Shown: one piece after another, positions 6,084 through 47,087 of the stretch
How the letters are laid out: each line of letters begins with the position of its first letter
How positions within the stretch are numbered: position 1 is the stretch's first letter
Source of the DNA: Primulina eburnea
Taxonomy: Eukaryota > Streptophyta > Magnoliopsida > Lamiales > Gesneriaceae
Reading direction: 5' to 3'
Length of the DNA: 64,000 nt
NCBI RefSeq assembly: GCF_022965805.1
Contig: NC_133109.1
Location: forward strand, 8,870,331-8,934,330
The notes under the pieces: model-generated
What the model saw: only the letters and a program-made list of their open reading frames with translations
Databases searched by the model: none
What the model was told of the DNA's origin: nothing
Position numbers and translations under genes: made by a program

Positions 6084-6749
6084 TGTGGGGACCTGGGCTC
6101 TAACTCAATTCTTTTGGGATTTAATTGGATCTTTGTTCGAAAATGTGGGTCAAAATTTTGCTTTTAACTTTAATTCAAATGTATAGATAAAGCATAACAT
6201 GTCGTTAACTGAAATTAAACAACATAATGTACATACATATCTGTCTAGTACAACCATACACTAGTGTTCGAATCTCAAATACAAACATAAGTAGTACAAG
6301 TTTCATAAGAAAACATTAGTAATCTGCAATGCCCGAGATCTCCACGCTATCATCATCTCTCATCTAGCTCGTGACCCCGATCCTGCCCCACCTGTTGCCA
6401 TGCACACATACAGACACGACAACAGCCGGATAACTCCGGTGAGAACATATCCCAGTATAAAACATGGATGCATGCAATGTCATAAATCATGTACAAAAGC
6501 ATAGCATATATCAATTAACATGAATAAAATCTAAACATGTAGAAGAATACAAATCTGTATTCAACATTCAAATCTTGACTCGACTCATTTCTAATCTAGG
6601 GATCCCGGTGTGAATAAGACGGTCTGTCACCTACCCAACCACTCGGGGCGACGGTACGTCTTATTCCTAGACTTCGGTCAACTCTGTATCGAGGGTCTAC
6701 ACATATAGCAAATCTGCTCCTATGTGTCGATACACCGAAACGTCTAGTT

Positions 6750-12800: not shown

Positions 12801-14613
12801 TGTGGGGACCCGGGCTCTAACTCAATTCTTTTGGGATTTAATTGGATCTTTGTTCGAAAATGTGGGTCAAAATTTTGCTTTTAACTTTAATTCAAATGTA
12901 TAGATAAAGCATAACATGTCGTTAACTGAAATTAAACAACATAATGTACATACATATCTGTCTAGTACAACCATACACTAGCGTTCGAATCTCAAATACA
13001 AACATAAGTAGTACAAGTTTCATAAGAAAACACTAGTAATCTGCAATGCCCGAGATCTCCACGCTATCATCATCTCTCATCTAGCTCGTGACCCCGATCC
13101 TGCCCCACCTGTTGCCATGCACACATACAGACACGACAACAGCCGGATAACTCCGGTGAGAACATATCCCAGTATAAAACATGGATGCATGCAATGTCAT
13201 AAATCATGTACAAAAGCATAGCATATATCAATTAACATGAATAAAATCTAAACATGTAGAAGAATACAAATCTGTATTCAACATTCAAATCTTGACTCGA
13301 CTCATTTCTAATCTAGGGATCCCGGTGTGAATAAGACGGTCTGTCACCTACCCAACCACTCGGGGCGACGGTACGTCTTATTCCTAGACTTCGGTCAACT
13401 CTGTATCGAGGGTCTACACATATAGCAAATCTGCTCCTATGTGTCGATACACCGAAACGTCTAGTTTTGGCAAGTCTGCCAATCTCTCCTATCTCAGGAC
13501 TCGAATATAAATCAATAAACAAGGCATTACATAATCAAATGTAATAACAATCTAGTATGTGATTTAGGGAAACTCGTATCAAATCTGAATCGAGTTGTGC
13601 AATCCCGTGACCACATGAATTATACCTTTCGTCGCACAATGTCTGTCGAGATCTTGAAGTCGGAATGTCACTCTGTCAAGACTAATCTGAAATGACAATA
13701 TACAAAGCATTCTATCAAGATATAACTCATATCAAAATCTTGTACAAGTCAATACTCCATCCCGGTAACAATCGACGGCATAACGGCATATTCTCGCAAT
13801 ACCGATCAACTCAAACAATGATACAAAATCATAATTCATTCCTAATCCCATCAACACATCCATATATATTCTGAAATCTGCATAAACTCGATCCATGCAT
13901 GCTGGAAAATCGAACTCATAGCATATGACATCCATAATTCGATTCGGTAGTGAATATATCAAGCTCATACTATCAAGAACACATATCTTCAACAAAATCA
14001 TAAATTCTCCAACACCTATGTTTCGAACCATGCTGAAAATGTATAAAACTTACGTCACTTTGTAGCCGTCAATGCAAGGAACACAAATCTTACCTCGGAA
14101 TTAAAATCGGATCTCTAAATCTTGCACAATCTAAATCACAACTTGAAAGAAGTTTGAAGGATTTCTTGGGAGCTCTCGGTTCTTGCTATGGAGATCTGAA
14201 AAATGAAGACTCAGCAGATTCCTATATATATATATATATATATATGCCATGTGTCAACACGAAATTCAAAGGTGGCAATCTCGCATGCAGACCGCGGGTG
14301 CGGTGACTCAAGAGTGCGGGTGCGCTGTGCTCTCGGCAGCAATATTATTTTCTGGAATTCTTAGACCGCGGGTGCGGTCCTTACATGACCGCGGGTGCGG
14401 TCTCACACCGCGGGGGCGGTCTTGCTAGCACCGCGGGTGCGGTGTCTGTTCGCACAATTTCACTAATTTCCTCTCAATGCACCGCGGGTGCTGTATCCCT
14501 AACACCGCGGGTGCGGTGTGGCTTCGGCCCTGCTGCTCAAAATCTCATAATTCATGCATTCTTATTTCCACAAGTCTAACATCAATGACAACGAATAATT
14601 CTCGAGCCTTACA
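12801..14613 (-). repeat. 5' LTR of element A
   Basis: 1813 bp, near-identical to 6084-7896. It ends at the TAGAT duplication, after which the satellite resumes. The intact U3 with dyads and TATA run lies at 14223-14517. Confidence 0.96.
14223..14517 (-). promoter_or_regulatory. U3 promoter of the element A 5' LTR
   Basis: TATA run at 14223-14245 and eight GC-rich dyad boxes at 14291-14517, in the same arrangement as the 3' LTR. Being in the 5' LTR, this is the copy that would drive the element's transcript. Confidence 0.6.
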
Positions 14614-17600
14614 TAGATTCTCTAAGATGGCACATTTTCTAGCTTCCCATAAAACCGATGATGCTTCAAACATTGCGGATTTGTTCTTTAGAGAAGTCGT
14701 TACGTTGCATGGAATGTCTAGGACTATTGTTTCTGGCCGCGATGTTAAATTCTTGAGTTACTACTAGAATAATTTATGGGCTAAACTTGGCACAAAATTG
14801 TTGTTTTCTACTACTTGTCATCCTCAAACTGAGGAAAAAACTGAAGTTGTCAATAGAACTTTGGGAACACTTTTGCGTGCTATTCTTAAAAAGAACTTGG
14901 ATTGACATTTCTATGGACTTTATTTTGGGGTTGCCTAGAACTAAGAAGGGGAGGGATTCTATTTTTGTTGTTGTGGATAGATTCTCTAAGATGGCACATT
15001 TTATAGCTTGCCATAAAACCGATGATTCTTCAAACATTGCGGATTTGTTCTTCAGAGAAGTCGTTAGGTTGCGTGGCATGCCTAGGACTATTGTTTCTGA
15101 TCGCGATGTTATATTCTTTAGTTATTTTTGAAGACTTTATGGGCTATACTTGGCACAAAATTGTTGTTTTCTACTATTTGTCATCCTCAAACGGATGGAC
15201 AAACTGAAGTTGTCAATAGAACTTTGGGAACACTTTTGCGTGCTATTCTTAAAAAGAACTTGGATTGACATTCCTGTGGACTTTATTTTGGGGTTGCCTT
15301 GGACTAAGAAGGGGAGAGATTCTATTTTTGTTGTTGTCGATAGATTCTCTAAGATGGCACATTTTCTAGCTTCCCATAAAACCGATGATGCTTCAAACAT
15401 TGCGGATTTGTTCTTTAGAGAAGTCGTTAGGTTGCGTGGCACGCCTAGGACTATTGTTTCTGATCGCGATGTTATATTCTTGAGTTACTTTTGGAAGACT
15501 TTATGGGCTGTACTTGGCACAAAATTGTTGTTTTCTACTATTTGTCATCCTCAAACGGATGGACAAACTGAAGTTGTCAATAGAACTTTGGGAACACTTT
15601 TGCGTGCTATTCTTAAAAAGAACTTAGATTTACATTTCTATAGAATTTATTTTGGAGTTGCCTAGGACTAAGAAGGGGAGGGATTCTATTTTTGTTGTTG
15701 TGGATAGATTCTCTAAGATGGCACATTTTATAGCTTGTCATTAAACCGATGATTATGCTTCAAACATTGCGGATTTGTTCTTTAGAGAAGTCGTTAGGTT
15801 GCGTGGCATGCCTGGGACTATTGTTTCTGATCGCAATGTTATATTCTTGAGTTACTTTTGGAAGACTTTATGGGCTAAACTTGGCCCAAAATTGTTGTTT
15901 TCTACTACTTGTCATCCTCAAACGGATGGACAAACTGAAGTTGTCAATAGAACTTTGGGAACATTTTTGCGTGCCATTCTTAAAAAGAACTTGGATTGAC
16001 ATTTCTATTGACTTTATTTTGGGGTTGCCTAGTACTAAGAAAGGGAGGGATTCTATTTTTGTTGTTGTGGATAGATTCTCTAAGATGGCACATTTTATAG
16101 CTTGTCATAAAACCGATTATGCTTCAAACATTGCGGATTTGTTCTTTAGGGAAGTCGTTACGTTGCATGGAATGTCTAGGACTATTGTTTCTGGTCGCGA
16201 TTTTAAATTCTTGAGTTACTTTTGGAAGACTTTATGGGCTAAACATGGCACAAAATTGTTTTTTTCTACCACTTTTCATCCTCAAACGGATGGACAAACT
16301 GAAGTTGTCAATAGAACTTTGGGAACATTTTTGCGTGTTATTCTTAAAAAGAACTTGGATTGACATTTCTGTGGACTTTATTTTGGGGTTGCCTTGGACT
16401 AAGAAGGGGAGAGATTCTATTTTTGTTGTTGTCGATAGATTCTCTAAGATGGCACATTTTCTAGCTTCCATAAAACCGATGATGCTTCAAACATTGCGGA
16501 TTTGTTCTTTAGAGAAGTCGTTAGGTTGCGTGGCACGCCTAGGACTATTGTTTCTGATCGCGATGTTATATTCTTGAGTTACTTTTGGAAGACTTTATGG
16601 GCTGTACTTGGCACAAAATTGTTGTTTTCTACTATTTGTCATCCTCAAACGGATGGACAAACTGAAGTTGTCAATAGAACTTTGGGAACACTTTTGCGTG
16701 CTATTCTTAAAAAGAACTTAGATTTACATTTCTATAGAATTTATTTTGGAGTTGCCTAGGACTAAGAAGGGGAGGGATTCTATTTTTGTTGTTGTGGATA
16801 GATTCTCTAAGATGGCACATTTTATAGCTTGTCATTAAACCGATGATTATGCTTCAAACATTGCGGATTTGTTCTTTAGAGAAGTCGTTAGGTTGCGTGG
16901 CATGCCTGGGACTATTGTTTCTGATCGCAATGTTATATTCTTGAGTTACTTTTGGAAGACTTTATGGGCTAAACTTGGCCCAAAATTGTTGTTTTCTACT
17001 ACTTGTCATCCTCAAACGGATGGACAAACTGAAGTTGTCAATAGAACTTTGGGAACATTTTTGCGTGCCATTCTTAAAAAGAACTTGGATTGACATTTCT
17101 ATTGACTTTATTTTGGGGTTGCCTAGTACTAAGAAAGGGAGGGATTCTATTTTTGTTGTTGTGGATAGATTCTCTAAGATGGCACATTTTATAGCTTGTC
17201 ATAAAACCGATTATGCTTCAAACATTGCGGATTTGTTCTTTAGGGAAGTCGTTACGTTGCATGGAATGTCTAGGACTATTGTTTCTGGTCGCGATTTTAA
17301 ATTCTTGAGTTACTTTTGGAAGACTTTATGGGCTAAACATGGCACAAAATTGTTTTTTTCTACCACTTTTCATCCTCAAACGGATGGACAAACTGAAGTT
17401 GTCAATAGAACTTTGGGAACATTTTTGCGTGTTATTCTTAAAAAGAACTTGGATTGACATTTCTGTGGACTTTATTTTGGGGTTGCCTTGGACTAAGAAG
17501 GGGAGGGATTCTATTTTTGTTGTTGTGGATAGATTCTCTAAGATGACACATTTTATAGCTTGCCATAAAACCGATGATGCTTCAAATATTGCGGATTTGT

Positions 17601-19310
17601 TCTTTAGAGAAGTCGTTAGGTTGCGTGGCATGCCTAGGACTATTGTTTCTGATCGCGATGTTATATTCTTGAGTTACTTTTGGAAGACTTTATGGGCTAT
17701 ACTTGGCACAAAATTGTTGTTTTCTACTACTTGTCATCCTCAAACGGATGGACAAACTGAAGATGTAAATATAACTTTGGGAACACTTTTGCGTGCTATT
17801 CTTAAAAAGAACTTAGATTGACATTTCTATGGACTTTATTTTGGAGTTGCCTAGGACTAAGAAGGGGAGGGATTCTATTTTTGTTGTTGTGGATATATTC
17901 TCTTAGATAGCACATTTTATAGCTTGTCATTAAACCGATGATGCTTCAAACATTGCGGATTTGTTCTTTAGAGAAGTCGTTAGTTTGCGTGGCATGCCTA
18001 GGACTATTGTTTCTGGTCGCGATTTTAAATTCTTGAGTTACTTTTGGAAGACTTTATGGGCTAAACTTGGCACAAAATTGTTGTTTTCTAATACTTGTCA
18101 TCCTCAAACGGATGGACAAACTGAAGTTGTCAATAGAACTTTGGGAACACTTTTGCGTGCCATTCTTAAAAAGAACTTGGATTGACATTTCTATTGACTT
18201 TATTTTGGGGTTGCCTAGTACTAAGAAGGGGAGGGATTCTATTTTTGTTGTTGTGGATAGATTCTCTAAGATGGCACATTTTATAGCTTGCCATAAAACC
18301 GATGATGCTTCAAACATTGCGGATTTGTTCTTTAGAGAAGTCGTTAGGTTGCGTGGCACGCCTAGGACTATTGTTTCTGATCGCGATGTTATATTCTTGA
18401 GTTACTTTTGGAAGACTTTATGGGCTATACTTGGCACAAAATTGTTGTTTTCTACTACTTGTCATCCTCAAACGGATGGACAAACTGAAGTTGTCAATAT
18501 AACTTTGGGAACACTTTTGCGTGCTATTCTTAAAAAGAACTTAGATTTACATTTCTATAGACTTTATTTTGGAGTTGCCTAGTACTAAGAAGGGGAGGGA
18601 TTTTATTTTTGTTGTTGTGGATAGATTCTCTAAGATGGCACATTTTATAGCTTGTCATAAAACTGATGATGCTTCAAACATTGCGGATTTGTTCTTTAGA
18701 GAAGTCGTTACGTTGCATGGAATGTCTAGGACTATTGTTTTTGGTCGCGATGTTAAATTCTTGAGTTACTTTTGGAAGACTTTATGGGCTAAACTTGGCA
18801 CAAAATTGTTATTTTCTACTACTTGTCATCCTCAAACGGATGAACAAACTGAAGTTGTCAATAGAACTTTGGGAACATTTTTGCGTGCTATTCTTAAAAA
18901 GAACTTAGATTGACATTTCTATGGACATTATTTTGGAGTTGCCTAGGACTAAGAAGGGGAGGGATTCTATTTTTGTTGTTGTGCATAGATTCTCTAAGAT
19001 GGCACATTTTATAGCTTGTCATTAAACCGATGATGCTTCAAATATTGCGGATTTGTTCTTGAGAGAAGTCGTTACGTTGCATGGAATGCCTAGGACTATT
19101 GTTTCTGGTCGCGATGTTAAATTCTTGAGTTACTATTAGAAGAATTTATGGGCTAAACTTGCCACAAAATTGTCGTTTTCTACTACTTGTCATCCTCAAA
19201 CGGATGGACAAACTGAAGTTGTCAATAGAACTTTGGGAACACTTTTGCGTGCTATTCTTAAAAAGAAATTAGATTGACATTTCTATGGACTTTATTTTGG
19301 AGTTGCCTAG
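14614..19310 (+). repeat. Integrase-core satellite array, block 2 (~12.9 copies)
   Basis: The same ~364-bp unit continues after element A. Full-length frames end near 16363, 17457, 17821 and 18913. Two units (ending 15665 and 18582) have lost the junction stop through TGA to TTA and read on a further 11 codons. Degraded units contain TAA in the CHK region (near 15742, 16836, 17930, 19022). A three-unit block is duplicated at 15263-17451. The block ends at the CCTAG duplicated by the solo LTR. Confidence 0.94.
15263..17451 (+). repeat. Duplicated three-unit higher-order repeat (~1094 bp x 2)
   Basis: 15263-16357 and 16358-17451 each hold three satellite units that share rare variants: GTCGATAG in place of GTGGATAG, GCTGTACTT, TTTACATTT at the junction, CCGATGATTATGC, GGCCCAAAA and a T-run in place of TTGTTTTC. 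Only two differences were noticed by eye (CATTCC/CATTTC and a CCC/CC indel), so this is a recent unequal exchange or local duplication. Confidence 0.9.
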
Positions 19311-20911: not shown

Positions 20912-23343
20912 CCTAGGACTAAGAAGGGGAGGGATTCTATTTTTGTTGTTGTGGATAGATTCTCTAAGATGGCACATTTTATAGCTTGTCAATAAACCGA
21001 TGATGCTTCAAACATTGCGGATTTGTTCTTGAGAGAAGTCGTTACGTAGCATGGAATGCCTAGGACTATTGTTTCTGGTCGCGATGTTAAATTCTTGAGT
21101 TACTATTGGAAGAATTTATGGGCTAAACTTGGCACAAAATTGTTGTTTTCTACTACTTCTCATCCTCAAACGGATGGAAAAACTGAAGTTGTCAATAGAA
21201 CTTTGGGAACACTTTTGCGTGCTATTCTTAAAAAGAACTTGGATTGACATTTCTATGGACTTTATTTTGGGGTTGCCTAGAACTAAGAAGGGGAGGGATT
21301 CTATTTTTGTTGTTGTGGATAGATTCTCTAAGATGGCACATTTATAGCTTGCCATAAAACCGATGATTCTTCAAACATTGCGGATTTGTTCTTTAGAGAA
21401 GTCGTTAGGTTGCGTGGCATGCCTAGGACTATTATTTCTGATCGCGATGTTATATTCTTGAGTTACTTTTGGAAGACTTTATGGGCTATACTTGGCACAA
21501 AATTGTTGTTTTCTACTACTTTTCATCCTCAAACGGATGGACAAACTGAAGTTGTCAATAGAACTTTGGGAACACTTTTGCGTGCTATTCTTAAAAAGAA
21601 CTTAGATTGACATTTCTATGGACTTTATTTTGGAGTTGCCTAGGACTAAGAAGGGGAGGGATTCTATTTTTGTTGTTGTGCATAGATTCTCTAAGATGGC
21701 ACATTTTATAGCTTGTCATTAAACCGATGATGCTTCAAACATTGCGGATTTGTTCTTTAGAGAAGTCGTTACGTTGCATGGAATGTCTAGGACTATTGTT
21801 TCTGGCCGCGATGTTAAATTCTTGAGTTACTACTAGAATAATTTATGGGCTAAACATGACACAAAATTGTTGTTTTCTACTACTTGTCATCCTCAAACGG
21901 AGGGAAAAACTGAAGTTGTCAATAGAACTTTGGGAAGACTTTTGCGTGCTATTCTTAAAAAGAACTTGGATTGACATTTCTATGGACTTTATTTTGGGGT
22001 TGCCTAGAACTAAGAAGGGGAGGGATTCTATTTTTGTTGTTGTGGATAGATTCTCTAAGATGGCGCATTTTATAGCTTGCCATAAAACCGATGATTCTTC
22101 AAACATTGCGGATTTGTTCTTTAGAGAAGTCGTTAGGTTGCGTGGCATGCCTAGGACTATTGTTTCTGATCGCGATGTTATATTCTTGAGTTACTTTTTG
22201 AAGATTTTATGGGCTATACTTGGCACAAAATTGTTGTTTTCTACTACTTGTCATCCTCAAACGGATGGACAAACTGAAGTTGTCAATAGAACTTTGGGAA
22301 CACTTTTGCGTGCTATTCTTAAAAAGAACTTAGACTGACATTTCTATGGACTTTATTTTGGAGTTGCCTAGGACTAAGAAGGGGAGGGATTCTATTTTTG
22401 TTGTTGTGGATAGATTCTCTAATATGGCACATTTTATAGCTTGTCATTAAACCGATGATGCTTCAAACATTGCGGATTTGTTCTTTAGAGAAGTCGTTAC
22501 GTTGCATGGAATGTCTAGGACTATTGTTTCTGGCCGCGATGTTAAATTCTAGAGTTACTATTAGAATAATTTATGGGCTAAACTTGGCACAAAATTGTTG
22601 TTTTCTACTACTTCTCATCCTCAAACGGATGGACAAACTGAAGTTGTTAATAGAACTTTGGGAACACTTTTATGTGCTATTCTTAAAAAGAACTTGGATT
22701 GACATTTCTATGGACTTTATTTTGGGGTTGCCTAGTACTAAGAAAGGAAGGGATTCTATTTTTGTTGTTGTGGATAGATTCTCTAAGATGGCACATTTTA
22801 TAGCTTGTCATTAAACCGATGATGCTTCAAACATGGCGGATTTGTTCTTTAGAGAAGTCGTTAGGTTGCGTGGCATGCCTAGGACAATTGTTTCTGATCG
22901 CGATGTTATATTCTTGAGTTACTTTTGGAAGACTTTATGGGCTAAACTTTGCACAAAATTGTTGTTTTCTACTACTTGTCATCCTCAAACGGATGGACAA
23001 ACTGAAGTTGTCAATGGAACTTTGGGAACACTTTTGCGTGTCATTCTTAAAAAGCACTTGGATTGACATTTCTATTGACTTTATTTTGGGGTTGCCTACT
23101 ACTAAGAAGGGGAGGGATTCTATTTTTGTTGTTGTGGATAGATTCTCTAAGATGGCACATTTTATAGCTTTTCATAAAGCCGATGATGCTTCAAACATGG
23201 CGGATTTGTTCTTTAGAGAAGTCGTTACGTTGCATGGCATGCCTAGGACTATTGTTTCTGGTCGCGATGTTAAATTCTTGAGTTAATTTTAGAATACTTT
23301 ATGGGCTAAACTTGGCACAAAATTGTTGTTTTCTACTACTTGT
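20912..23343 (+). repeat. Integrase-core satellite array, block 3 (~6.7 copies)
   Basis: Satellite units continue between the solo LTR and element B. Most are degraded by stops (near 20994, 21719, 21836, 22448, 22562, 22812) or 1-bp losses (near 21342). Full-length frames survive near 22338 and 22814. The right end is the CTTGT duplicated by element B. Confidence 0.93.
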
Positions 23344-23514
23344 TGTAAGGTCCGAGAATTTGATTACCGTAATCTGAAATGATTTGGGTATAATTACCGT
23401 AATCTTAGATTAATCTGGGATGATGTCTTGATTAATTAATGTAATTATAGACGGAACCAAATAAGACCGGGAGAACCGAAAGAAGGTTGGATATTATGCG
23501 TAAAGAAGGGTCCC

Positions 23515-23826
23515 CGCGCACATGCGCGATGAGTATGGGCGCACATGCGCGAGGAAGACAGAACCCTGCGCGCACATGCGCGAACTGAATGCGCGCACAT
23601 GCGCGGAACGTCCAGAATGGTTGGCGCACATGCGCCGAAACATGGCGCGCATATGCGCGAGGGGGCGCGCACCTGCGCGACGAGATATCGTGCATATGCG
23701 CGCGAGGATGAATCGTCGAGGCAGTAGGTCTCGCGCATATGCGCGAGAATATGCGCGCATATGCGCGAGAGGATTTGTGGCAAAGTTTTGGGAAGACACG
23801 TATGAATCACATGCAATATATATATA
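23515..23826 (+). promoter_or_regulatory. U3 promoter of the element B 5' LTR: ten GCGC palindromes and TATA
   Basis: Ten boxes of the form GCGC-AYAT-GCGC (several are the full palindrome CGCGCATATGCGCG) lie about 170-430 bp into the LTR, followed by a TATA run at 23816-23826. The box sequence is unlike that of A and C but the position and dyad symmetry are the same. Confidence 0.6.
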
Positions 23827-24554
23827 CCTACATTCCTTCTTAAGTGTCAGAAGAAGGAAACGAAGCCAAGAATTGAGGAAAGAGAGAAAAACAAGTTCGA
23901 AGCATAGACTTGTGATTTCTACAAAATCCGTCTGTCTGATTTTAAATCTGACTGCGGTATTGAGTTCCTATCAAAGTAGGCTACGACTTGACGTAAGTTT
24001 TACTACGTTTTGACATGTTTTAGAATTATGATATTGTCAGAATTGAATGGAACTTATATATGTTGTTCTTGACATAGTAAACAGCAAAGAATCGAAGTCA
24101 GAGTAAGAAACAGACTGAATATGAACTTGTTATGATTTTTAGAATGAGATTGAATAAGAATTGATATCCAGATTGAGTGATTATCGATTATGAGATATTA
24201 GAATTGATATTTGACTGATATGATAGGGCTGGATATATTGAGATTACGCCGTTATGTTGTTGAAACAGAATTGGATTGGATTCTGATTATATCCAGTATT
24301 GATTGATTGGTGTATTGATATTGTACCCTCGATATTGTGATTGTCAGATTGAGTATCGACAGGCTTTGAGTTCGAGACTTCGACAGGGTCAGAGTATCAG
24401 AAAGAAAGGTATAAATTAATGTTGTGTTGGGATTGCACAACTCGAGGAAGGTTTGACTCGAGTTTCCCTAAATCACATACTTAGTTTATTACATTGATTC
24501 TTGTAATTGATAAGATTGATGATTGTAGTCTATTGATTTATAGCCACTGCATGT

Positions 24555-24810
24555 AATGACTGCTGATTCGCTAGTCATTGATTGAGTTGCTTAGATACTG
24601 ACTGTATGTATTGATTACCGAGTCGTGGAGTCATAGGCTGATTCGCCTAGTCACCGGCTGATTCGTCTGGTGATTGACTGATTCGTCTAAACTTAAGTTG
24701 ATTCGCTTAAATACAGGCTGAGTTGTCTGATTATGGGCTGATTCGCCTAATTACCGGCTGATTCGTCGGGTTATTGACTGAGTCGTCAATTCTGCGGCTG
24801 ATTCGCAAGA
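24555..24810 (+). other. Serial hairpin array in the element B LTR (constant loop, variable stems)
   Basis: About ten to twelve consecutive short hairpins, most with the loop TGATTC or a near variant (TGAGTC, TGAGTT). Stems differ but pair internally: TAGGC/GCCTA, TTAAGT/GCTTAA (with a G.U), CAGGC/GTCTG (with a G.U), ATTGAC/GTCAAT and others. The first has a 7-bp outer stem AATGACT/AGTCATT. It lies about 740 bp downstream of the TATA run, so it should be transcribed. The function is unknown; RNA structure is the obvious possibility. Confidence 0.6.
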
Positions 24811-24919
24811 CACTGGATATATGAATTATATCGATGCCGTTAGGGATTGATTCATTCCTATCGACTGAGATTCGGTATAATTATTATTATTCAGACATCG
24901 GGATCCCTAGGATAGAGTT

Positions 24920-24995
24920 GAGTCGAGTCTGAGACGACGCGTCAGTGGAGTCGAGTCTGAGACGATGCGTCGGTTGAGTTGAGTCTGATATGACA
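24920..24995 (+). repeat. 28-bp tandem repeat in the element B LTR
   Basis: Two 28-bp copies (24920-24947 and 24948-24975) starting GAGTCGAGTCTGAGACGA, plus a diverged partial third. It follows a GGGATCCCTAG block that is also found in the LTRs of A and D. Confidence 0.8.
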
Positions 24996-25492
24996 TGTTG
25001 ATTTACATTATTTATGCCATTCATGATTATTGAATGTTTGATATGGATTTATGTTTCTGATTCGAGACATGTTAGGAATAATTCTTATATGCTTTCGTAT
25101 ATGCTTTTATATGACTGCATGTTTTACATTGTTTATACTGGGATATTTATATCTCACCGGAGTTATCCGGCTGTTGTCTTGTTTTATATGTGTGCATGAC
25201 AGCAGGTGGGGCTGGATCAGGGTCAAGAAGAGGATGAGAGAAGATTAGATAGCGTGGAGATCCGGGCTTCGAAGCAACATAGGATTCAGCACTGATATGT
25301 AGTTGAACCTAGTTGAATTCTTGTAGATAACGCAAGATTTGTATATTCATGTTTAATATGTAATTTGAGTAAATTACATTACGTTTCCGCTTTGTATTTT
25401 TTTTAAAAAAAATTTAGACCCTATTTTATAATTGTTTAATTAGTCCCAAACATGATTAAGAACTTGATTAGCGTCCGGGTCCCCACAACAGG

Positions 25493-25504
25493 TGGTATCA
25501 GAGC
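25493..25504 (+). other. Primer-binding site of element B
   Basis: TGGTATCAGAGC, five bases after the 5' LTR and complementary to initiator-Met tRNA. A leader of about 265 bp follows before gag. Confidence 0.92.
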
Positions 25505-25770
25505 TGTAGGTACTAGAACTGTAGACTTTTGAGACTGAGATAAAAGCTAGTGAGCGGGGTAGATTGAATTTTCTTTCCTGCTTTTGAATGCTAGCATGTC
25601 GTACTGCTTTATATAATACATGTTACTTGATTTATCTGATTTGATTTTGTAATATGTATTATTGGGAACGAACCTGAACCGATTCTCGATCAGCAGTAAG
25701 ATGATCGGAGGAGAGACTGAATTGAAACAGGTGTGTTGGATTGGATTAATAATCCTTTTGAGTTTCAGAT

Positions 25771-26841
25771 ATGCCTCCTAGACGAATTCCAGAACAGGGT
25801 AGTACATCGAATCCTCCAATGGATGTAACACCGACTCCAATGAAAACCTTGCTGAAGAGGTTTCAGTCATTCAAACCACCCACTCTGAAAGGTACTGAGA
25901 CATCGGTCGAGTGTGAGAGTTGGTTAGGTAGCATTGAGTTGCTGTTTGATTCACTGGAGTACAGTGATGAGCGCCGGATTAAATTGATTGGGCACCAGTT
26001 GCTTGATGTTGCACAAAGCTGGTGGATTACAATGAAGAGGGCCTTGGAGCAGCGAGGTACGATTATTACTTGGGATGTATTTAAAACTGAGTTTTATCAG
26101 AGATTTTTCCCAATATCGTACAGAAAAGACAAGGGGGCAGAGTTTGCTAATTTGAGACAGGGTCAGCTGAACATTGAGGAATATGTAACCAAGTTCTCTA
26201 CCTTGTTGAAGTTTGCTCCACATGTGTCTGAAAATGACGAAGCCGTTGCTGATCAGTTCATCAATGGCTTGAATCCCGATATTTTTACATTGGTGAACAC
26301 AGGACGACCGAATAACTTTGCTGATGTCATGAATAGAGCAAAGGGCGCTGAAGCGGGCCTGATAAGGCAGAGAGGAGCTTAATTTGTTCCTCCAGTGTCG
26401 AGACCACCGCAACCACCTCCCCGATTCGAGAGTGGCAGTAGCAGTGGTGGAAGGAAAGATTTTCTGAAGGCTAGAAGAAAGCAATTTAAGAATTCTGGCG
26501 GCAGTTCTTCTAGCTCTAGTGGCTCTCAGCAGAGTTATACTGGCGTGTACTGCGAAAATTGTGGAGGGAGACATGCCACTGAGCAATGCCAAGGAGTACT
26601 TGGTAGCTGCCACTTCTGCAAGCAACAGGGACATTTTGCCAGAGTATGTCCACAGAGGGGTTCCCAAAAATCCCAAGGAGCTGAACCATCTGGATCAGCG
26701 GCACAGTGGAGTAGACGATCAGTTGCCGTTCCTTCATTTCAGCCAGCACCATTTCAGTCACAGCAGAGGCCAGGAGGAAGCCAGACAGTTGGCCAGCCTC
26801 CTAGACAGCAGGCCAAAGTATTTGCTTTGACCGAGGAATAG
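25771..26841 (+). pseudogene. gag: Element B gag with two in-frame stops
   Basis: The frame starts MPPRRIPEQGST, like Gag of element A, and runs through the capsid-like region to a TAA at 26380-26382. It continues in the same frame through a basic Ser-rich stretch to a CCHC zinc knuckle ([14 protein letters not shown]) and a TAG at 26839-26841; in A the matching codon is a Gln, so this looks like a C-to-T change. Apart from these stops the gag frame is clean, unlike the pol that follows. Confidence 0.88.
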
Positions 26842-28790
26842 GCTCAGGAAGCACCAGATGATGATGTTGCAGGTAACTGATTTGTTTGATTTTCCTGCAT
26901 GTGTATTGAGGGATACCGGTGCTTCACATACTTTTATTTCTGAGAGATTTGCATTGATGCATGCATTATCTGTTGAGTCCTTATGTATTGTAGTATTTGT
27001 TTCTTTTCTTTTGGGGAAAAGATCTTGTATCAGCGATTTCTGTTAGATCTTGTATACTACAGTAGAATGAGAATGAGATTGAGTTAGATCGTGTGGTAAC
27101 TTGTATTGTACTGGGGTTCTATGATTTTGGAACTGCATTATTGATATTGATATGCTGATCAAGTACAGAGCTACCATAGATTAATTCCAGAAGATGGTGA
27201 GAATCAGATCTAAGATGACCAAGAGATGAATATTGTACGATAAGAATTCTAGACTGAGAATTCCTTTGATATTCGTACTATGACTCGATTATTACAGAAA
27301 GGAGCAGACTAACTCCTTATGTATTCAGTTGATTTACTGAAGTTGAGTCTATCATTTGCTGATTTACCAATGATAAGAAAGTTCTCGATGTTTTCTCTGA
27401 TAAGACTTCAGATCTGATTTCAATCAGAGAGATTGATTTTAGTCTTGAACTGATATTAGAAATTGTTGAAATTTTGAATCTTGATTGAGACAGAGTGCAT
27501 TCAGGATGTGTTATATCTGAAGATGATATATTCGTGATTTTCACAGAATTAAACCGTGGTTAGTCAGCCGAGGTTGACATCAGTGTCAGACAGTTGCGGT
27601 TTATGAGTTTAGCATGTTTTGAATCTGATTGAATATTGATGTTATTCGGAACACGTGCTTGAGACAGATTATAGACAATGGAGATTGTATTGTACAGTCC
27701 GAACCAGAGCTGATTTTGAAATATAAGTAGGTCAGAAAGTGGACCAGAATGTACAGAATTCGATATCGATAGTCAGAATAAGGTGTCGATCAGAATATCA
27801 GGTAAGTAATACTGTATTGTATATTAATAACTAACTTGTTGGTGCCTGATATTTCCAATTTGAAATGACAGAATTGTCAGAAGGGTGCAATACTTGATTC
27901 AGTAGGCATCCTGATAGCAGAAAATGTTTTGATAGAAACAGATGAGATTAGATAAGACAGAGTTTGGACTAAAATGTCTGAATTACAGACAGATAAAGAT
28001 AGAAAGAAAACAAACCAAGAGATTGGTTATGTAACTTATCGATTTCTGAATGGAGATTAGATTACATTTCCAAGGATATCGTGATGAAGTTACTACATTC
28101 CTCTCGGAATTGAGTATTGATTGAGTTAGGAAGGACAGACTGACCTAGTCTGCGAGTGCTAACTCGTACATGAAGATGTACAGAAAGATCTCCCTCCAAG
28201 CCGTACATACGACTTTCCTCGAATACGGATGATATATAACTGAGATTTTGTCAGAAAAGTAATTAGATTACACGGAGTGTTGAGAATTGATTATATTAAA
28301 CCGTGATTTTGGTTGATTTTGCACATTTGACCGAATATACAGTAAGAGTTGGATACTAGATTATATCTGAATACTGAATAGTATTCACTATCTGACGGAC
28401 AGTCAGAGTGGAGTATCCAGATTCCAGAACATAGGCTTAGAGTTGTAGTGTTTGATTTAACACTAATTGGCAGGATTTATTGCCATGTTGTGAGTTTTTA
28501 TACCACAACAGATATTAAATGAGTATGGGAATGACACTATTATACATGTTGTACGTTAAGAAGTACAGATTCCCTCTTTATTGAAATGATATCTCTGAGG
28601 TTCCTGAGATTCGACCTGACATGATCAGAGATATGACGGAAAAGATGAAGCTAATTCAGAAGAAAATGAAAATAGCTCATGATAATCAGACTGAATATGC
28701 CAACGTCAGATGATGACTATTGGTAACTGAGATTAAAGATCGAATATAACTTTGATTGAGATAAACAGACTTAATAACAGCCGATGGTGT
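26842..28790 (+). pseudogene. Element B pol remnant (protease to integrase C-terminus)
   Basis: A recognisable but broken pol. A protease block with RDTGASHTF is near 26920; a stretch matching the RNase H/integrase linker is near 27700-27800; the integrase C-terminal block DISEVPEI...[10 protein letters not shown] is near 28588-28650. Frames change often and stops are frequent. With the tail at 37151-37369 it totals about 2.2 kb, against about 3.4 kb for the same part of A, so deletions are substantial. B2 is inserted at its right end. Confidence 0.8.
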
Positions 28791-37385: not shown

Positions 37386-37555
37386 TGTAAGGCCCGAGAA
37401 TTTGATTACCGTAATCTGAAATGATTTGGGTATAATTACCGTAATCTTAGATTAATCTGGGATGATGTCTTGATTAATTAATGTAATTATAGACGGAACG
37501 AATAAGACCGGGAGAACCGAAAGAAGGTTGGATATTATGCGTAAAGAAGGGTCCC

Positions 37556-37823
37556 CGCGCACATGCGCGATGAGTATGGGCGCACATGCGCGAGGAAGAC
37601 AGAACCCTGCGCGCACATGCGCGAACTGAATGCGCGCACATGCGCGGAACGTCCAAAATGGTTGGCGCACATGCGCCGAAACATGGCGCGCATATGCGCG
37701 AGGGGGCGCGCACCTGCGCGATGAGATAGCGCGCATATGCGCGAGAATATGCGCGCATATGCGCGAGAGGATTTGTGGCAAAGTTTTGGGAAGACACGTA
37801 TGAATCACATGCAATATATATAT
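37556..37823 (+). promoter_or_regulatory. U3 region of the element B 3' LTR: nine GCGC palindromes and TATA
   Basis: Nine boxes lie at 37556-37768 and a TATA run at 37813-37823. One box plus flanking sequence present in the 5' LTR is missing, a copy-number difference within a pair of sister LTRs. Confidence 0.6.
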
Positions 37824-38550
37824 ACCTACATTCCTTCTTAAGTGTCAGAAGAAGGAAACGAAGCCAAGAATTGAGGAAAGAGAGAAAAACAAGTTCGAAG
37901 CATAGACTTGTGATTTCTACAAAATCCGTCTGTCTGATTTTAAATCTGACTGCGGTATTGAGTTCCTATCAAAGTAGGCTACGACTTGACGTAAGTTTTA
38001 CTACGTTTTGACATGTTTTAGAATTATGATATTGTCAGAATTGAATGTAACTTATATATGTTGTTCTTGACATAGTAAACATCATAGAATCGAAGTCAGA
38101 GTAAGAAACGAACTGAATATGAACTTGTTATGATTTTCAGAATGAGATTGAATAAGAATTGATATCCAGATTGAGTGATTATCGATTATGAGATATTAGA
38201 ATTGATATCTGACTGATATGATAGGGCTGGATATATTGAGATTACGCCGTTATGTTGTTGAAACAGAATTGGATTGGATTCTGATTATATCCAGTATTGA
38301 TTGAGTGGTGTATTGATATTGTACCCTCGATATTGTGATTGTCAGATTGAGTATTGACAGGCTTTGAGTTCGAGACTTCGACAGGGTCAGAGTATCAGAA
38401 AGAAAGATATAAATTAATGTTGTTGGGATTGCACAACTCGAGGAAGGTTTGACTCGAGTTTCCCTAAATCACATACTTAGTTTATTACATTGATTCTTGT
38501 AATTGATGAGATTGATGATTGTAGTCTATTGATTTATAGCCACTGCATGT

Positions 38551-38810
38551 AATGACTGTTGATTCGCTAGTCATTGATTGAGTTGCTTAGATACTGACTG
38601 TATGTATTGATTACTGAGTCGTGGAGTCATAGGCTGATTTGCCTAGTCACCGGCTATTCGTCTGGTGATTGACTGATTCGTCTAAACTTAAGCTGATTCG
38701 CTTAAATACAGGCTGAGTTGTCTGATTATGGGCTGATTCGCCTAATTACCGGCTGATTCGTTGGGTTATTGACTGAGTCGTCAATTCTGCGGCTGATTCG
38801 CCAGACACTG
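38551..38810 (+). other. Serial hairpin array in the element B 3' LTR
   Basis: Second copy of the hairpin series. Several differences from the 5' LTR keep pairing: TTAAGC/GCTTAA here against TTAAGT/GCTTAA, and GT/GC here against GC/GC in the first hairpin. One hairpin has lost loop bases and one loop has changed to TGATTT. Confidence 0.6.
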
Positions 38811-39479
38811 GATATATGAATTAGATCGATGCCGTTAGGGATTGATTCATTCCTATCGACTGAGATTCGGTATAATTATTATTATTCAGACATCGGGATC
38901 CCTAGGATAGAATTGAGTCGAGTCTGAGACGACGCGTCAGTGGAGTCGAATCTGAGACGATGCGTCGGTTGAGTTGAGTCTGATATGACATGTTGATTTA
39001 CATTATTTATGCCATTCATGATTATTGAATGTTTGATATGGATTTATGTTTCTGATTCGAGACATGTTAGGAATAATTCTTATATGCTTTAGTATATGCT
39101 TTTATATGACTGCATGTTTACATTGTTTATACTGGGATATTTATATCTCACCGGAGTTATCCGGCTGTTGTCTTGTTTTGTATGTGTGCATGACAACAGG
39201 TGGGGCTGGATCAGGGTCAAGAAGAGGATGAGAGAAGATTAGATAGCGTGGAGATCCGGGCTTCGAAGCAACATAGGATTTAGCACTGATATGTAGTTGA
39301 ACCTAGTTGAATTCTTGTAGATAACGCAAGATTTGTATGTTCATGTTTAATATGTAATTTGAGTAAATTACATTACGTTTCCGCTTTGTATTTTAAAAAA
39401 AAAATTTAGACCCTGTTTTATAATTGATTAATTAGTCCCAAACATGATTAAGAACTTGATTAGCGTCCGGGTCCCCACA

Positions 39480-40190
39480 CTTGTCATCCTCAAACGGATG
39501 GAAAAACTGAAGTTGTCAATAGAACTTTGGGAACATTTTTGCGTGCTATTCTTAAAAAGAACTTGGATTGACATTTCTATGGACTTTATTTTGGGGTTGC
39601 CTAGAACTAAGAAGGGGAGGGATTCTATTTTTGTTGTTGTTGATAGATTCTCTAAGATGGCATATTTTATAGCTTGCCATAAAACCGATGATGCTTCAAA
39701 CATTGCGGATTTGTTCTTTAGAGAAGTCGTTAGGTTGCGTGGCATGCCTAGGACTATTGTTTCTGATCGCGATGTTATATTCTTGAGTTACTTTTGAAAG
39801 ACTTTATGGGCTATACTTGGCACAAAATTGTTGTTTTCTACTACTTGTCATCCTCAAACAGATGGACAAACTGAAGTTGTCAATAGAACTTTGGGAACAC
39901 TTTTGCGTGTTATTCTTAAAAAGAACTTAGATTGACATTTCTATGGACTTTATTTTGGAGTTGCCTAGGACTAAGAAGGGGAGTGATTATATTTTTGTTG
40001 TTGTGGATAGATTCTCTAAGATGGCACATTTTATAGCTTGTCATTAAACCGATGATGCTTCAAACATTGCGGATTTGTTATTTAGAGAAGTCGTTACGTT
40101 GCATGGAATGCCTAGGACTATTGTTTCTGGTCGCGATGTTAAATTTTTGAGTTACTATTGGAAGAATTTATGGGCTAAACTTGGCACAAA
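39480..40190 (+). repeat. Integrase-core satellite array, block 4 (~2 copies)
   Basis: Two satellite units between B and C. They contain a TGA at the FW position (near 39796) and a TAA in the CHK region (near 40046). The block stops inside a unit at GGCACAAA, where a truncated element C LTR begins. The two sides share CAAA. Confidence 0.92.
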
Positions 40191-41752
40191 CATGGAAGGA
40201 GTTTCAAGATACATTTTATAAAAGTGTTTACAAAATAACAACATGATCATTCCAATGACATAACAAAATACAAAATATCATTAGTGTGATCATGTTACAA
40301 AATGGTACAAAATAATCATCCTTCCAATCTTCGTATGCATATGACCCCCATCCACAGTCAACGTCCCGGTCCGTCGCTCTTATCTGCATCACATGAAAAT
40401 AACTGAAATGAGAATAAATCTCAGCAAGTGGAACTCTTACATAGCAATGATACATAGTATACACTGTAAAACATGACTTTGAAATCATAAATACCATCAA
40501 CTCTGAAACATGAATAACGTAGCAATAACTGTAGCAATAGCAATGGCAATAGATAGCAAAACGATGGTATTTCTCTTTTCTCTGGTTGGATTGATATCAA
40601 TAGTATCTGTGACTGTGGTTGCCAATATCCCATCGATATAAATCGATAACTGTGAGGGGATAAAAGTCTATGGTCGATGATCATCTAATTGCATGCAATG
40701 CTATGGCTATGATTAATCAATCCAATAAAACATTTGAATTCTCAATAGCATTTAAGGCCGTCGTTTCGCAATCTCATAATATCTCTTGTATTCCCTTTTT
40801 AACAATAGTGAGACATCAATGCCTCCAATAGATAATCAATGAAATCAATACATAACAATGGATCAATGGAAGGGAATAACACTTTGAAACCTTTAAAACA
40901 CAATACATATAATATCATGTGAGCAAAAAGGATGAAATTCCACTTACAAACCAATAGAACACCTCCAACTATACTCTTGGTACACCACCTACAACAATAT
41001 TCCATAAATAACACCAATATCAAGACTAAATCCAAAAGTCCATGCTAAATAATCCATAGAACCATCAAAACATCAAATCCAAAATAACCCTTAACTCGAA
41101 ACCTCATTAGAATCGCACCAAAAACTTACCTAAGCTTCCTTATACCACGGAGAACGATGATCTCAAGTCGGAAATCCAAATAACTCCAAGAATCAAAGGT
41201 AGGAAGCTAAAGAAATGGATGAAAACCCTTGCCAATGGAGGGAAGTCTCGAATGGAAGGGAAAGAAATGGATAAGGTATGGCCAACAACTCCCAAAAAGT
41301 AGCTAAATATCTCGCCCATACTTACACCGCGGGTGCGGTCACACAAGCACCGCGGGTGCGCTAAGCTCACGGCAACCAAAATAAATCCCATGCACGAACA
41401 CCGCGGGTGCGGTGCTACAATTACCGCGGGTGCGGTCTCACCGCGGGTGCGATCCTTGCACTGCCGCGGGTGCGGTGATGCCACGGCCCTCCAAAACCAA
41501 AATCATGAATAGTACACCGCGGGGGCACTCATCTAAGAGCGCGGGTGCACTCTACTCACGGCAATGAACAGTAACAAAACAACTAAAAATCGATTCGAAA
41601 CGCTGAAACGAACAATCAACACCAACTAACACCTCAAATAAATAATAACCAATAATACTATAGCCCAAAACACAACTATAATCATCTAATCACATAACCC
41701 AATTAACACAATAAAGCTTAAACCGTACCGTACACCGGGCTCGGCTATTACA
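40191..41752 (-). repeat. 3' LTR of element C, terminally truncated
   Basis: Matches 47143-48707 but lacks the outer ~55 bp. On the minus strand that is the distal end of the 3' LTR. The break joins directly to satellite DNA. Confidence 0.92.
41325..41552 (-). promoter_or_regulatory. U3 dyad-box array of the element C 3' LTR
   Basis: Eight boxes close to ACCGCGGGTGCGGT, about 200-425 bp into the LTR. The minus strand has TATAAG near 41137-41147 downstream, a candidate TATA box. Confidence 0.55.
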
Positions 41753-41767
41753 ATCTCCCCTCCTTAG
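41753..41767 (-). other. Polypurine tract of element C
   Basis: The minus strand reads AAGGAGGGGAGAT before the 3' LTR. Confidence 0.85.
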
Positions 41768-41792
41768 AGGAATTTCGTCCTCGAAATTGACG

Positions 41793-43160
41793 TCACGGCA
41801 CGAACAACTCAGGATACCTCTCTCTCATCTCAGTCTCTGGTTCCCACGTAGCCTCCTGAATCAAATGGTTCCTCCAAAGGACTTTAACGATGCCGATCTC
41901 TTTGTTCCTCAGAACTCTAACTGTGCGATCCAGAATCTGAATCGGAATCTCATGGTAAGTCAGACTCGGCGTCAAGTCCAATGGCTCATGGCGAAGAACA
42001 TGGGAAGGATCTGCAATATACTTCCTGAGCATCGATACGTGAAACACATTATGGACTCTGTCAAGATCGGGCGGTAGGGCTAATCTGTAGGCTCGGTCAC
42101 CCACTCTGTCCAATATCTCGAATGGACCAATGAATCTAGGGCTCAACTTGCCCTTCTTGCCAAATCGCATCACACCCTTGAGAGGTGCTATCTTCAGAAA
42201 AACATGATCGCCAACCTCGAACTGCAAAGGTCTACGACGAACGTCTGCATAGCTCTTCTGTCTTGACTGAGCAGTCTTCATCCTCTCTCTGATAACTGCA
42301 ACAACATCGGCAGTCTGTTGGACCAACTCGGGACCCAACATCTTCCTCTCTCCAACCTCATCCCAAAACAAAGGGGATCTGCACTTCCTGCCATAAAGTG
42401 CCTCATACGGTGCCATGCCAATCGTCGCCTGGTAGCTATTGTTGTACGTGAATTCCACAAGAGGCAACTTGGAATCCCAGCTACCAGAATAGTCAATAGT
42501 ACAAGCTCTGAGCATATCCTCCAGAATCTGAATGACTCTCTCTGACTGACCGTCGCTCTTAGGATGATAAGCTGTACTGAAAGCTAATCGAGAACCCATA
42601 GCTCTGTGCAAACTCTTCCAGAACTCTGAGGTAAATCTAGGGTCACGATCAGACACAATCGACACGGGCACACCATGAAGTCTAACAATCTCTGCAATGT
42701 AATCCTCGGCATACTGAGACATCGAATACGTCGTCTTGACTGGGAGAAAGTGCGCTGACTTGGTCAATCTATCAACAATAACCCAAATGGAATTGAAACC
42801 CTTCTGCGTCCTGGGTAAACCAGTCACGAAATCCATAGTGATATGCTCCCACTTCCACTGAGGAATCGGCAAAGAAATCAATGTCCCAGCAGGTCTCTGG
42901 TGCTCAATCTTTACCTGCTGACAAGTAAGGCACTGAGAAATGAACAAAGCAATATCTCTATTCATACCTGGCCACCAGTAGAGTCGACGAAGATCCTGAT
43001 ACATCTTCGTACTGCCTGGATGAATCGAATAAGGTGAGGTATGAGCCTCTGTCAAGACGTCTCTACGAATATCGTCGCCAGAAGGAACACAAATGCGGCC
43101 TCTGAAAGTTACCAAATCATCACCATTCAGACTAAACTCTGAATTCCCTCTAGCCTCGGC
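41793..43160 (-). pseudogene. Element C pol, 3' part (integrase and C-terminal domain)
   Basis: Open from the insertion point to a stop at 41793. It holds the integrase HHCC region (CLTCQQVK), the acidic core with MDFVTGLP, SDRDPRF and KSDGQSE at D-X35-E, and a chromodomain-like tail (QEATWEPE...RYPELF). It is the downstream half of the gag-pol frame at 43899-46954. The halves are separated by the 738-bp insertion, and the frames agree if the insertion and one TCGGC copy are ignored. No other break was found. Confidence 0.9.
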
Positions 43161-46800: not shown

Positions 46801-46954
46801 GGCCTCGACCCTGTCCTGCTCCTTGCAATGGGAGCAACTGCTGAATCTGATCGCTATGCACCTTAGCCTGCTCCTTAAGCAACTTGCCGAACTCGTCGAC
46901 AACTCTCGAGGAAGAACTATCCTCACCCTCTGCCGCCTTACGCTTAGGAGGCAT
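43899..46954 (-). pseudogene. gag-pol: Element C gag-pol, 5' part (Gag, protease, RT, RNase H)
   Basis: Open from [12 protein letters not shown] at 46954 to the insertion. Gag carries a CCHC knuckle (C305, C308, H313, C318). Protease has DTGA at 362-365. RT has FIDD at 696-699 and a single [14 protein letters not shown] block. RNase H follows, and the frame reaches the linker before integrase. It then runs 50 more codons into the fold-back insertion and stops at 43748. A leader of about 115 bp lies between the PBS and the start. No stop or shift was seen before the insertion, so this element was probably active until recently. Confidence 0.92.
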
Positions 46955-47070
46955 ACTCTACAATTGCTCACAAGACACCAATCAATAAATATAACAATGG
47001 ATAGATGCAAGAAAACATACCCGGACAGTTGAAAGTAGACGAAGTCATATGCATTGGTCCGAAGAACACC

Positions 47071-47082
47071 GCTCTGATACCA
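47071..47082 (-). other. Primer-binding site of element C
   Basis: The minus strand reads TGGTATCAGAGC, five bases inside the 5' LTR if the LTR is taken to begin at 47088. Confidence 0.9.
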
Positions 47083-47087
47083 CTAAA

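What the first reader, a model, noticed from the sequence alone, without database searches (positions are those of the whole stretch)
24555..24810. Serial hairpins with a constant loop and self-complementary variable stems
About a dozen consecutive units share TGATTC (or TGAGTC/TGAGTT), but the flanking 3-7 bases differ from unit to unit and are still complementary: TAGGC/GCCTA, ATTGAC/GTCAAT, CAGGC/GTCTG, TTAAG[T/C]/GCTTAA. A plain minisatellite would not keep pairing while changing both arms. G.U pairs suggest selection on RNA. The array lies ~740 bp after the TATA run, in sequence expected in the transcript. Packaging, dimerisation, protein binding or translation control are possible. I know of no described equivalent.
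Basis: partly seen in the sequence, partly recalled or inferred. Interest (0 to 1): 0.88.

Follow-up and report, generated by a model that had tools for sequence, protein, structure and literature searches.

The report
Repeated RNA hairpins in plant retrotransposon
A jumping gene that makes only a capsid protein carries a row of small hairpins with nearly the same tip but different, still-pairing stems, which looks like a repeated address tag on its RNA, probably for being packed into particles.

Summary
Window 24555-24810 has 13 unit slots, mostly 20 nt apart, with loop TGA(T/G)T(C/T). Own arms pair far better than swapped arms (0 of 200,000 permutations). The array sits in the 5' LTR (23344-25487), ~740 nt after the TATA run, of a Ty3/gypsy insertion whose relatives have a gag ORF but no pol ORF. 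The genome (probably Primulina eburnea) holds thousands of such units. In 56 distinct units, both-sided pair changes far exceed shuffles (58 vs 22.8, 0/500); under a tree-aware null support is moderate (5/300 and 1/300). At the second pair G-C, G-U and A-U occur, never A-C; genome-wide the G-U form outnumbers A-C 4930:118 without mutational strand bias. The same loop caps unrelated stems elsewhere: outside array and gag in this copy, TGATTT and TGATTC are the two commonest hairpin loops (6 of 16 occurrences vs 30 of 2608). Best reading: a multivalent RNA tag read through its loop, most likely by the element's own Gag. RNA-level pairing is well supported; Gag binding and packaging are inferred. 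My ten literature searches showed no equivalent.

The parts
23344..25487 (+). 5' LTR of the host element (TGTAAGG...CCCCACA), 2144 bp
   Evidence: 96% identical to the 3' LTR
23339..23343 (.). target-site duplication CTTGT (mate at 39480-39484)
23817..23826 (+). TATA run; transcription probably starts shortly downstream (inferred)
   Evidence: motif reading only
24557..24810 (+). tandem hairpin array, 13 slots, loop TGAKTY (TGA[T/G]T[C/T]; one CGAGTC, one TGACT), mostly 20-nt period
24530..24543 (+). extra hairpin CTAT-TGATTT-ATAG (4 bp) just before the array
24841..24860 (+). extra hairpin TAGGGAT-TGATTC-ATTCCTA (7 bp); AGGAAT form in other copies
24995..25008 (+). weak extra hairpin ATGT-TGATTT-ACAT (4 bp)
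25051..25070 (+). extra hairpin ATGTTTC-TGATTC-GAGACAT (7 bp)
25493..25504 (+). primer binding site TGGTATCAGAGC
   Evidence: assignment to initiator Met-tRNA recalled
25762..26841 (+). gag region, interrupted by an in-frame stop in this copy; uninterrupted 372-aa ORF in L105 and L106
27116..27133 (+). dispersed hairpin GTTCTA-TGATTT-TGGAAC
27324..27341 (+). dispersed hairpin TTCAGT-TGATTT-ACTGAA; stem identical in the 4 copies compared and in E2, where the loop is AGATCT
27350..27375 (+). dispersed hairpin, 9-bp stem with 8-nt loop C-TGATTT-A in L105, L106, L107; one mismatch in this copy
   Evidence: pairing by eye
28299..28314 (+). dispersed hairpin AACCG-TGATTT-TGGTT
28446..28465 (+). dispersed hairpin TAGTGTT-TGATTT-AACACTA; L106 has AGTGC/GCACT with loop CAGATTTTA at the same place
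37386..39479 (+). 3' LTR, with its own copy of the array at 38553-38806

Best explanation
The array is a multivalent RNA tag. Shown by sequence analysis: a tandem set of hairpins with a near-fixed hexaloop UGA(U/G)U(C/U) and changing but still-pairing stems, in the LTR downstream of the TATA run of a gag-only (TR-GAG type) Ty3/gypsy element; the same hexaloop recurs on unrelated stems in the downstream LTR and in the post-gag region, and was not found in the gag region of the two copies tested. Inferred: the stem only presents the loop, and the loop is read by an RNA-binding protein. Inferred and less certain: that protein is the element's own Gag, whose C-terminal part has two CCHC knuckles, so that many weak sites together mark this RNA for packaging into particles whose reverse transcriptase and integrase come from an apparently autonomous relative such as the one at 14613-6084.
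For: Own-arm versus swapped-arm test. 58 both-sided pair changes vs 22.8 +- 3.6, 0/500, and covariation score 0.413 vs 0.242, 0/500, on 56 distinct units. Tree-aware null with 56 units: canonical pairing reached in 5/300, G statistic in 1/300. Second pair GC 22, GU 18, AU 16, other 0 of 56; genome-wide GGC..GTC 4930 vs GAC..GCC 118, with no strand bias in 11 presumed LTR pairs (C/T 64, A/G 60). Same loop outside the array: 2 vs 0.027 expected in the downstream LTR (0/300); 4 vs 0.04 post-gag in the window copy and 3 vs 0.07 in L106 (0/200 each); TGATTT and TGATTC top a loop ranking made without a motif, 6/16 vs 30/2608 (Fisher 3e-8). Dispersed stems 165/174 and loops 82/84 identical vs 3817/4432 elsewhere. 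Gag ORF uninterrupted in L105 and L106, dN/dS 0.25 between them.
Against: No RNA, probing or binding data. Single-sequence folding is weak and not strand-specific (z -2.35 and -2.07), and 24815-25075 folds no better than shuffles (z 0.11). In the tree-aware test the best single pairs reach only p 0.03-0.06, pairs 1 and 4 do not stand out, and with all 153 units the G statistic is reached in 24/200 nulls. In one search the number of further pair types does not exceed shuffles (16 vs 14.7, 133/500). The excess of G-U over A-C among shared units compared with recent changes is not significant (27:3 vs 11:5, p 0.105), and the 4930:118 count is of copies, not of independent events. A covariance model of the array does not retrieve the dispersed hairpins significantly. 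L105 and L107 have only one perfect dispersed TGAKTY hairpin each, 13/200 and 14/200 shuffles. Packaging through dispersed hairpins failed an in vivo test in STNV-1 (PMC6475782, abstract).
Confidence: 0.45

Rival explanations
1. The hairpins are read by a host RNA-binding protein and serve nuclear export, stability or translation of the element RNA rather than packaging.
For: A near-constant loop on arbitrary stems fits any loop-reading protein; the array lies in the presumed leader. Gag binding was not tested.
Against: I recall no plant protein known to read this loop. The sister element E2 has 0 TGAKTY hexaloop hairpins of 5 bp or more in LTR and ORF, which a shared host factor would not predict.
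Confidence: 0.25
2. Mutational artefact: quasi-palindrome correction (template switching within a hairpin during DNA replication or reverse transcription) keeps arms complementary without selection for function.
For: The array is a short tandem repeat with 100-bp higher-order duplication and variable unit number; such correction would create both-sided changes.
Against: It would give Watson-Crick arms and equal G-T and A-C intermediates; 4930:118 is seen with symmetric mutation. It does not explain a constant loop or the same loop on unrelated stems.
Confidence: 0.12
3. Ordinary minisatellite whose pairing is inherited from a founding palindrome, without function.
For: Tandem subrepeats are common in some plant LTR elements (PMC7004042, passages); tree-aware support is only moderate.
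Against: Swapped-arm and shuffle tests; new stems such as TATAGC/GCTATA and ATAGAC/GTCTAT that pair perfectly; hairpins outside the array.
Confidence: 0.07
4. Dimerisation signal: loops kiss between two RNAs.
For: Retroviral leaders dimerise through hairpins (abstract starts in the listing).
Against: UGAUUC is not self-complementary; only GAUU/GAUU with two G-U pairs (by inspection). Loop variants UGAGUC and UGAGUU would weaken it.
Confidence: 0.06
5. DNA-level element: an array of protein-binding dyads or cruciforms acting as enhancer or insulator.
For: 20-bp period is close to two helical turns; the U3 of the same LTR does carry a palindrome array (23515-23770).
Against: A DNA-binding dyad would keep its arms, not its centre; the G-T/A-C asymmetry has a strand.
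Confidence: 0.05

Closest known systems
TR-GAG elements (plant gag-only LTR retrotransposons)
   Same: Two LTRs, PBS, a Gag ORF (uninterrupted in 2 of the 3 relatives looked at, the third cut within gag) and no pol ORF in the 3 internal stretches; one Arabidopsis TR-GAG is reported to transpose (PMC8704663, passages).
   Different: The TR-GAG passages I saw mention no repeated hairpins.
Dispersed packaging signals of STNV and other ssRNA viruses
   Same: Several hairpins with a shared loop motif and variable stems (recalled) on an RNA that, in STNV, encodes only the shell protein (PMC3593212, PMC6281560: listing with abstract start).
   Different: Here mostly a tandem array, in a retrotransposon; no binding data. 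In STNV-1 the signals had no discernible significance for packaging in vivo (PMC6475782, abstract).
Sirevirus palindromic repeated motifs in LTRs
   Same: Clusters of short palindromes in a plant LTR (PMC2829016, passages).
   Different: Those lie upstream of the TATA box and keep their arms; the matching thing here is the separate U3 array at 23515-23770, not the finding.
Tandem subrepeats of Tat/Ogre elements
   Same: Short tandem repeats, variable in length, inside Ty3/gypsy elements (PMC7004042, passages).
   Different: Those are in the 3' UTR; the word 'hairpin' has 0 occurrences in that paper's main text.
Ty1/Ty3 and retroviral leader RNA domains
   Same: Structured RNA near the 5' end, tied to packaging and dimerisation (PMC5454406 listing with abstract start; PMC4974528 passages).
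   Different: No constant-loop multi-hairpin array in the passages and abstract starts that I saw.

Membership tests
LTR retrotransposon insertion | two LTRs with TG...CA ends, PBS, purine tract, target-site duplication | tested here: met
   LTRs 23344-25487 and 37386-39479, PBS at 25493, AAGAGGGGGAGAAA before 37386, TSD CTTGT
TR-GAG | uninterrupted Gag ORF | tested here: met
   372-aa ORFs in L105 and L106 with PF03732 and PF19259; the window copy has an in-frame stop; L107 was cut within gag
TR-GAG | no pol ORF between the LTRs | tested here: met
   No pol-length ORF listed in L105, L106 or L107; only diverged similarity to E2's pol region
TR-GAG | mobilised in trans by an autonomous partner | not testable with these tools
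   E2 in the window has a 1586-aa gag-pol ORF and similar LTR ends, which is only suggestive
Dispersed packaging signals | several hairpins with a common loop motif on one RNA | tested here: met
Dispersed packaging signals | loop bound by the shell protein | not testable with these tools
   no binding data
Sirevirus repeated motifs | palindromes upstream of the TATA box | tested here: not met
   array is ~740 nt downstream of the TATA run
Tat/Ogre tandem subrepeats | located downstream of the coding region, outside the LTR | tested here: not met
   array lies inside the LTR
Any Rfam family | match at gathering score | tested here: not met
   10 matches up to E 5 in 23344-25700, none reaching its gathering score
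Kissing-loop dimer signal | self-complementary loop | tested here: not met
   UGAUUC by inspection of the sequence

The most novel reading that the evidence does not exclude
A gag-only retrotransposon uses a loop-coded, multi-site RNA address: about 10-13 tandem and several dispersed hairpins with loop UGAKUY that its own Gag reads, a packaging code in an LTR retroelement comparable to that proposed for satellite viruses. The loop may have diverged with the lineage: two adjacent hairpins shared with the sister E2 carry AGAUCU there and UGAUUU here on conserved stems, which would let the parasite RNA address its own Gag.
Probability: 0.3. Interest if true: 0.88.

Novelty: new variant of a known kind. 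Interest (0 to 1): 0.7.

Why it matters
How plant LTR retrotransposon RNAs are selected for packaging is, as far as I know (recalled), largely uncharted, and how gag-only elements compete with full-length ones is open. A natural series of dozens of stems carrying nearly one loop is a ready-made test set: it predicts which bases matter (the loop) and which do not (stem identity), and the family is present in thousands of units in one genome.

Tried and rejected
Rfam: no match at gathering score. Viral and prokaryotic contig scans: 0, 20 and 2 stretches matching short patterns, taken as chance and not examined further; by their descriptions these collections hold no plants. A covariance model of the array was expected to retrieve the dispersed hairpins and did not. 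E2's hairpin at 9778 was dropped as evidence because it lies in a coding stretch that is similar in the other elements compared. E2's AGATCT loops lie in codons and AGATCT is its own reverse complement, so its enrichment in E2 pol (3 vs 0.17, 0/200) also appears on the antisense strand (2 vs 0.05, 0/200); I use it only in the novel case. E3 shows no TGAKTY hairpins (LTR; partial internal region). Folding z-scores were not strand-specific. Nested element (its sense strand) and window 40200-56600 (both strands): 0 TGAKTY hairpins. One search is an earlier version of the unit tests (46 types, 0/20,000 swaps), superseded because it still held two non-array sequences. Never answered: the searches with E3, with L053, for the 27330 hairpin, and the counts of GGCTGATTCGCC and GACTGATTCGTC, which I had planned as denominators.

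Rows dropped: one search left out L023, L025, L105-L107, arrays with fewer than 5 loops, identical arrays and the non-hairpin slot beginning GCTTAGA; one search used 56 of 153 distinct units (those seen in 2 or more arrays). One search scored 40 of 2182 candidates, 40 of 2478, 40 of 3488. Hit counts are inflated by overlapping loci; I use only the variants seen.

Full report
What is there. The finding lies inside a 2144-bp LTR (23344-25487) whose partner is 37386-39479; the pair is flanked by the duplication CTTGT and followed by a primer binding site at 25493. The element is interrupted by another element, Ty3/gypsy-like by eye, in the opposite orientation. The genome tool places the window in an 812-Mb genome; four of its contig lengths equal those listed for Primulina eburnea proteins (65783404 for C1, 47997621 for C2, 45344737 for C8, 29615798 for C17), a Gesneriaceae species.

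The array. Thirteen slots, 10 of 12 spacings exactly 20 nt, carry the loop TGA(T/G)T(C/T), one of them CGAGTC and one TGACT. Own arms pair with a summed energy of -46.5 kcal/mol against -19.8 +- 4.9 after swapping right arms (0 of 200,000); dropping three units duplicated by a 100-bp higher-order repeat leaves -28.4 against -12.4 +- 3.6 (0 of 200,000); five units of one repeat alone give 164 of 20,000. Shifting the register by 2 to 10 bases gives sums of 0.0 to -20.8. In this copy the last unit is damaged; in most other copies it pairs with a single bulge (by eye).

Genome-wide copies. Two CTGATTCG words 20 nt apart occur 6559 + 6390 times, control 0. I parsed 73 distinct arrays from the fetched loci (775 units), with 8-13 loops each under that parse and 8-15 under the looser parse. 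Unit number changes in 20-nt steps and new, perfectly pairing stems appear, such as TATAGC/GCTATA and ATAGAC/GTCTAT. In the 56 distinct units seen in two or more arrays, 72.6% of pair cells are standard (shuffled 62.3), 58 cells changed on both sides (22.8 +- 3.6) and the covariation score is 0.413 (0.242 +- 0.021), each 0/500; pairs with a both-sided change are 5 (4.0, 4/500), while further pair types, 16, do not exceed shuffles (14.7, 133/500). Sliding by +1 keeps 61.9% and a score of 0.360, in part because many units carry a one-base bulge (my reading); the other slides fall to 48.8% or lower. I added a null that keeps the tree of the units: canonical pairing over five pairs 4.14 against 3.43 +- 0.37 (5/300), G statistic 110.8 against 49.8 +- 19.1 (1/300); with all 153 units 0/200 and 24/200. 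So covariation survives correction for relatedness, but moderately, and no single pair is decisive (best p 0.03-0.06).

Which nucleic acid. At the second pair the 56 units show GC 22, GU 18, AU 16 and nothing else. Genome-wide, GGC-TGATTC-GTC (G-T) occurs 4930 times and GAC-TGATTC-GCC (A-C) 118 times. Differences between 11 presumed LTR pairs (same strand, 5-7 kb apart, the window pair 14 kb because of the nested element; only the window pair is confirmed by its duplication) are C/T 64 and A/G 60, so mutation shows no strand bias; base composition alone would give a ratio of about 1.8. Counts of copies are not independent events, since whole units are amplified. Summed over pairs 1-3, unit types in two or more arrays have G-U 27 and A-C 3 (A-C all at pair 3), and recent single changes 11 and 5; that contrast alone is not significant (p 0.105). 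I take the second-pair result as the best sign that the plus-strand RNA is the selected form.

Outside the array. The same hexaloop caps unrelated stems at 24848 (7 bp) and 25058 (7 bp) in the LTR (2 against 0.027 expected, 0/300), weaker ones at 24534 and 24999, and four after gag (27122, 27330, 28304, 28453; 4 against 0.04, 0/200). Relatives: L106 three (0/200), L105 one (13/200), L107 one (14/200). With stems of 5 bp or more there are none in gag plus 5' UTR of the window copy or of L105 (L106 and L107 gag not tested), in the LTR upstream of the array (23344-24555), or on the minus strand of the tested window LTR and internal pieces. Ranking all hexamers without a motif in mind, TGATTT (4 of 13 occurrences) and TGATTC (2 of 3) are the top two loops in the window copy, against 30 of 2608 for all others. 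TGATTT also tops the list in L106; in L105 and L107 no loop occurs more than once. Dispersed stems and loops are better conserved (165/174, 82/84) than the rest (3817/4432); I chose two of the six sites after seeing other copies, so this is somewhat biased. The hairpin at 25058 also shows a variant in which one pair changed on both sides, GTTTC/GAGAC to GTATTC/GATAC with one bulged base (pairing by eye).

The element. L105 and L106 have an uninterrupted 372-aa Gag ORF (PF03732, PF19259) with two CCHC-type knuckles (read by eye; no Pfam knuckle model matched at the threshold used), dN/dS 0.25 between them, and no pol ORF; L107, cut within gag, has no pol ORF either. This is the TR-GAG type; an Arabidopsis TR-GAG is reported to transpose (PMC8704663, passages). 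Gag relatives listed (120 of 164 shown) are all named from Primulina, Henckelia and Dorcoceras. The sister element E2 (14613-6084, minus strand) has a 1586-aa gag-pol ORF and similar LTR ends. At the array's place its LTR holds other hairpins and no TGAKTY ones. Two adjacent hairpins after gag are shared: stems TTCAGT/ACTGAA and CATTGG.., with AGATCT loops in E2 and TGATTT in E1.

Mechanism. A near-fixed loop on interchangeable stems, repeated about 10-13 times and scattered elsewhere, is the anatomy of a multivalent protein tag. Gag is the natural candidate because the element encodes little else and must get its RNA into particles with borrowed enzymes. This step is inferred. A host RNA-binding protein is the main rival. 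Quasi-palindrome correction explains matched arms but not the constant loop, its use on unrelated stems, or the G-U/A-C asymmetry.

Literature. Ten searches of the held open-access library, whose listings were capped at 8 to 15 papers, showed no constant-loop hairpin array in an LTR retrotransposon; the most direct query returned 0 papers. Subscription papers are not covered. A 2025 survey of plant structured RNAs holds no 'retrotransposon' or 'LTR' in its main text (PMC12218528, term search). The nearest analogies are dispersed packaging signals of ssRNA viruses, with the caution that those of STNV-1 had no discernible significance in vivo (PMC6475782, abstract).

I held the first version against the calls; wording was mended where it was too wide (units that do not pair in this copy, gag copies tested, presumed LTR pairs, measures that do not exceed shuffles).

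Noticed in passing
window 1-6084, 14613-19310, 20912-23343, 39479-40190, 56670-59138: A 364-bp tandem satellite whose unit looks derived from integrase-coding sequence of a retrotransposon (by eye); the element of this finding is inserted in it with duplication CTTGT.
   Followed up: partly
window 23515-23770: Array of near-perfect palindromes (GCGCATATGCGC type) in U3 upstream of the TATA run, reminiscent of the Sirevirus repeated motifs; E2 and E3 LTRs have CACCGCACCCGCGGTG-type palindromes upstream of their TATA runs.
   Followed up: partly
window 25153-25212 and the same place in the E2 and E3 LTRs: A hairpin conserved across LTR families with a pair changed on both sides: CTGTTGTC/GACAACAG in many E1 copies and CTGTTGTT/AACAACAG in E3; neighbouring blocks CTCACCGG, CAGGTGGGGC and GCGTGGAGAT are shared by the E1, E2 and E3 LTRs of the window.
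   Followed up: partly
window 24916-24999: 28-bp tandem repeats (GTCGAGTCTGAGACGACGCGTC type) just downstream of the array.
   Followed up: no
window 14613-6084 (minus strand): Sister Ty3/gypsy element (E2) with one 1586-aa gag-pol ORF; both its ends lie at borders of the 364-bp satellite.
   Followed up: partly
G000 contig C884, 82284-99113: Four LTR arrays at about 5.5-kb spacing on one strand, suggesting elements sharing LTRs in tandem.
   Followed up: no
window 62458 (minus strand, E3 internal region): Hairpin GATGTTTC-AGATTT-GAGACATC, whose inner stem equals that of the E1 LTR hairpin at 25058; some E1 copies have the AGATTT loop there too.
   Followed up: partly
window 43404-43898: 253-bp tandem duplication, about 90% matching.
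   Followed up: no
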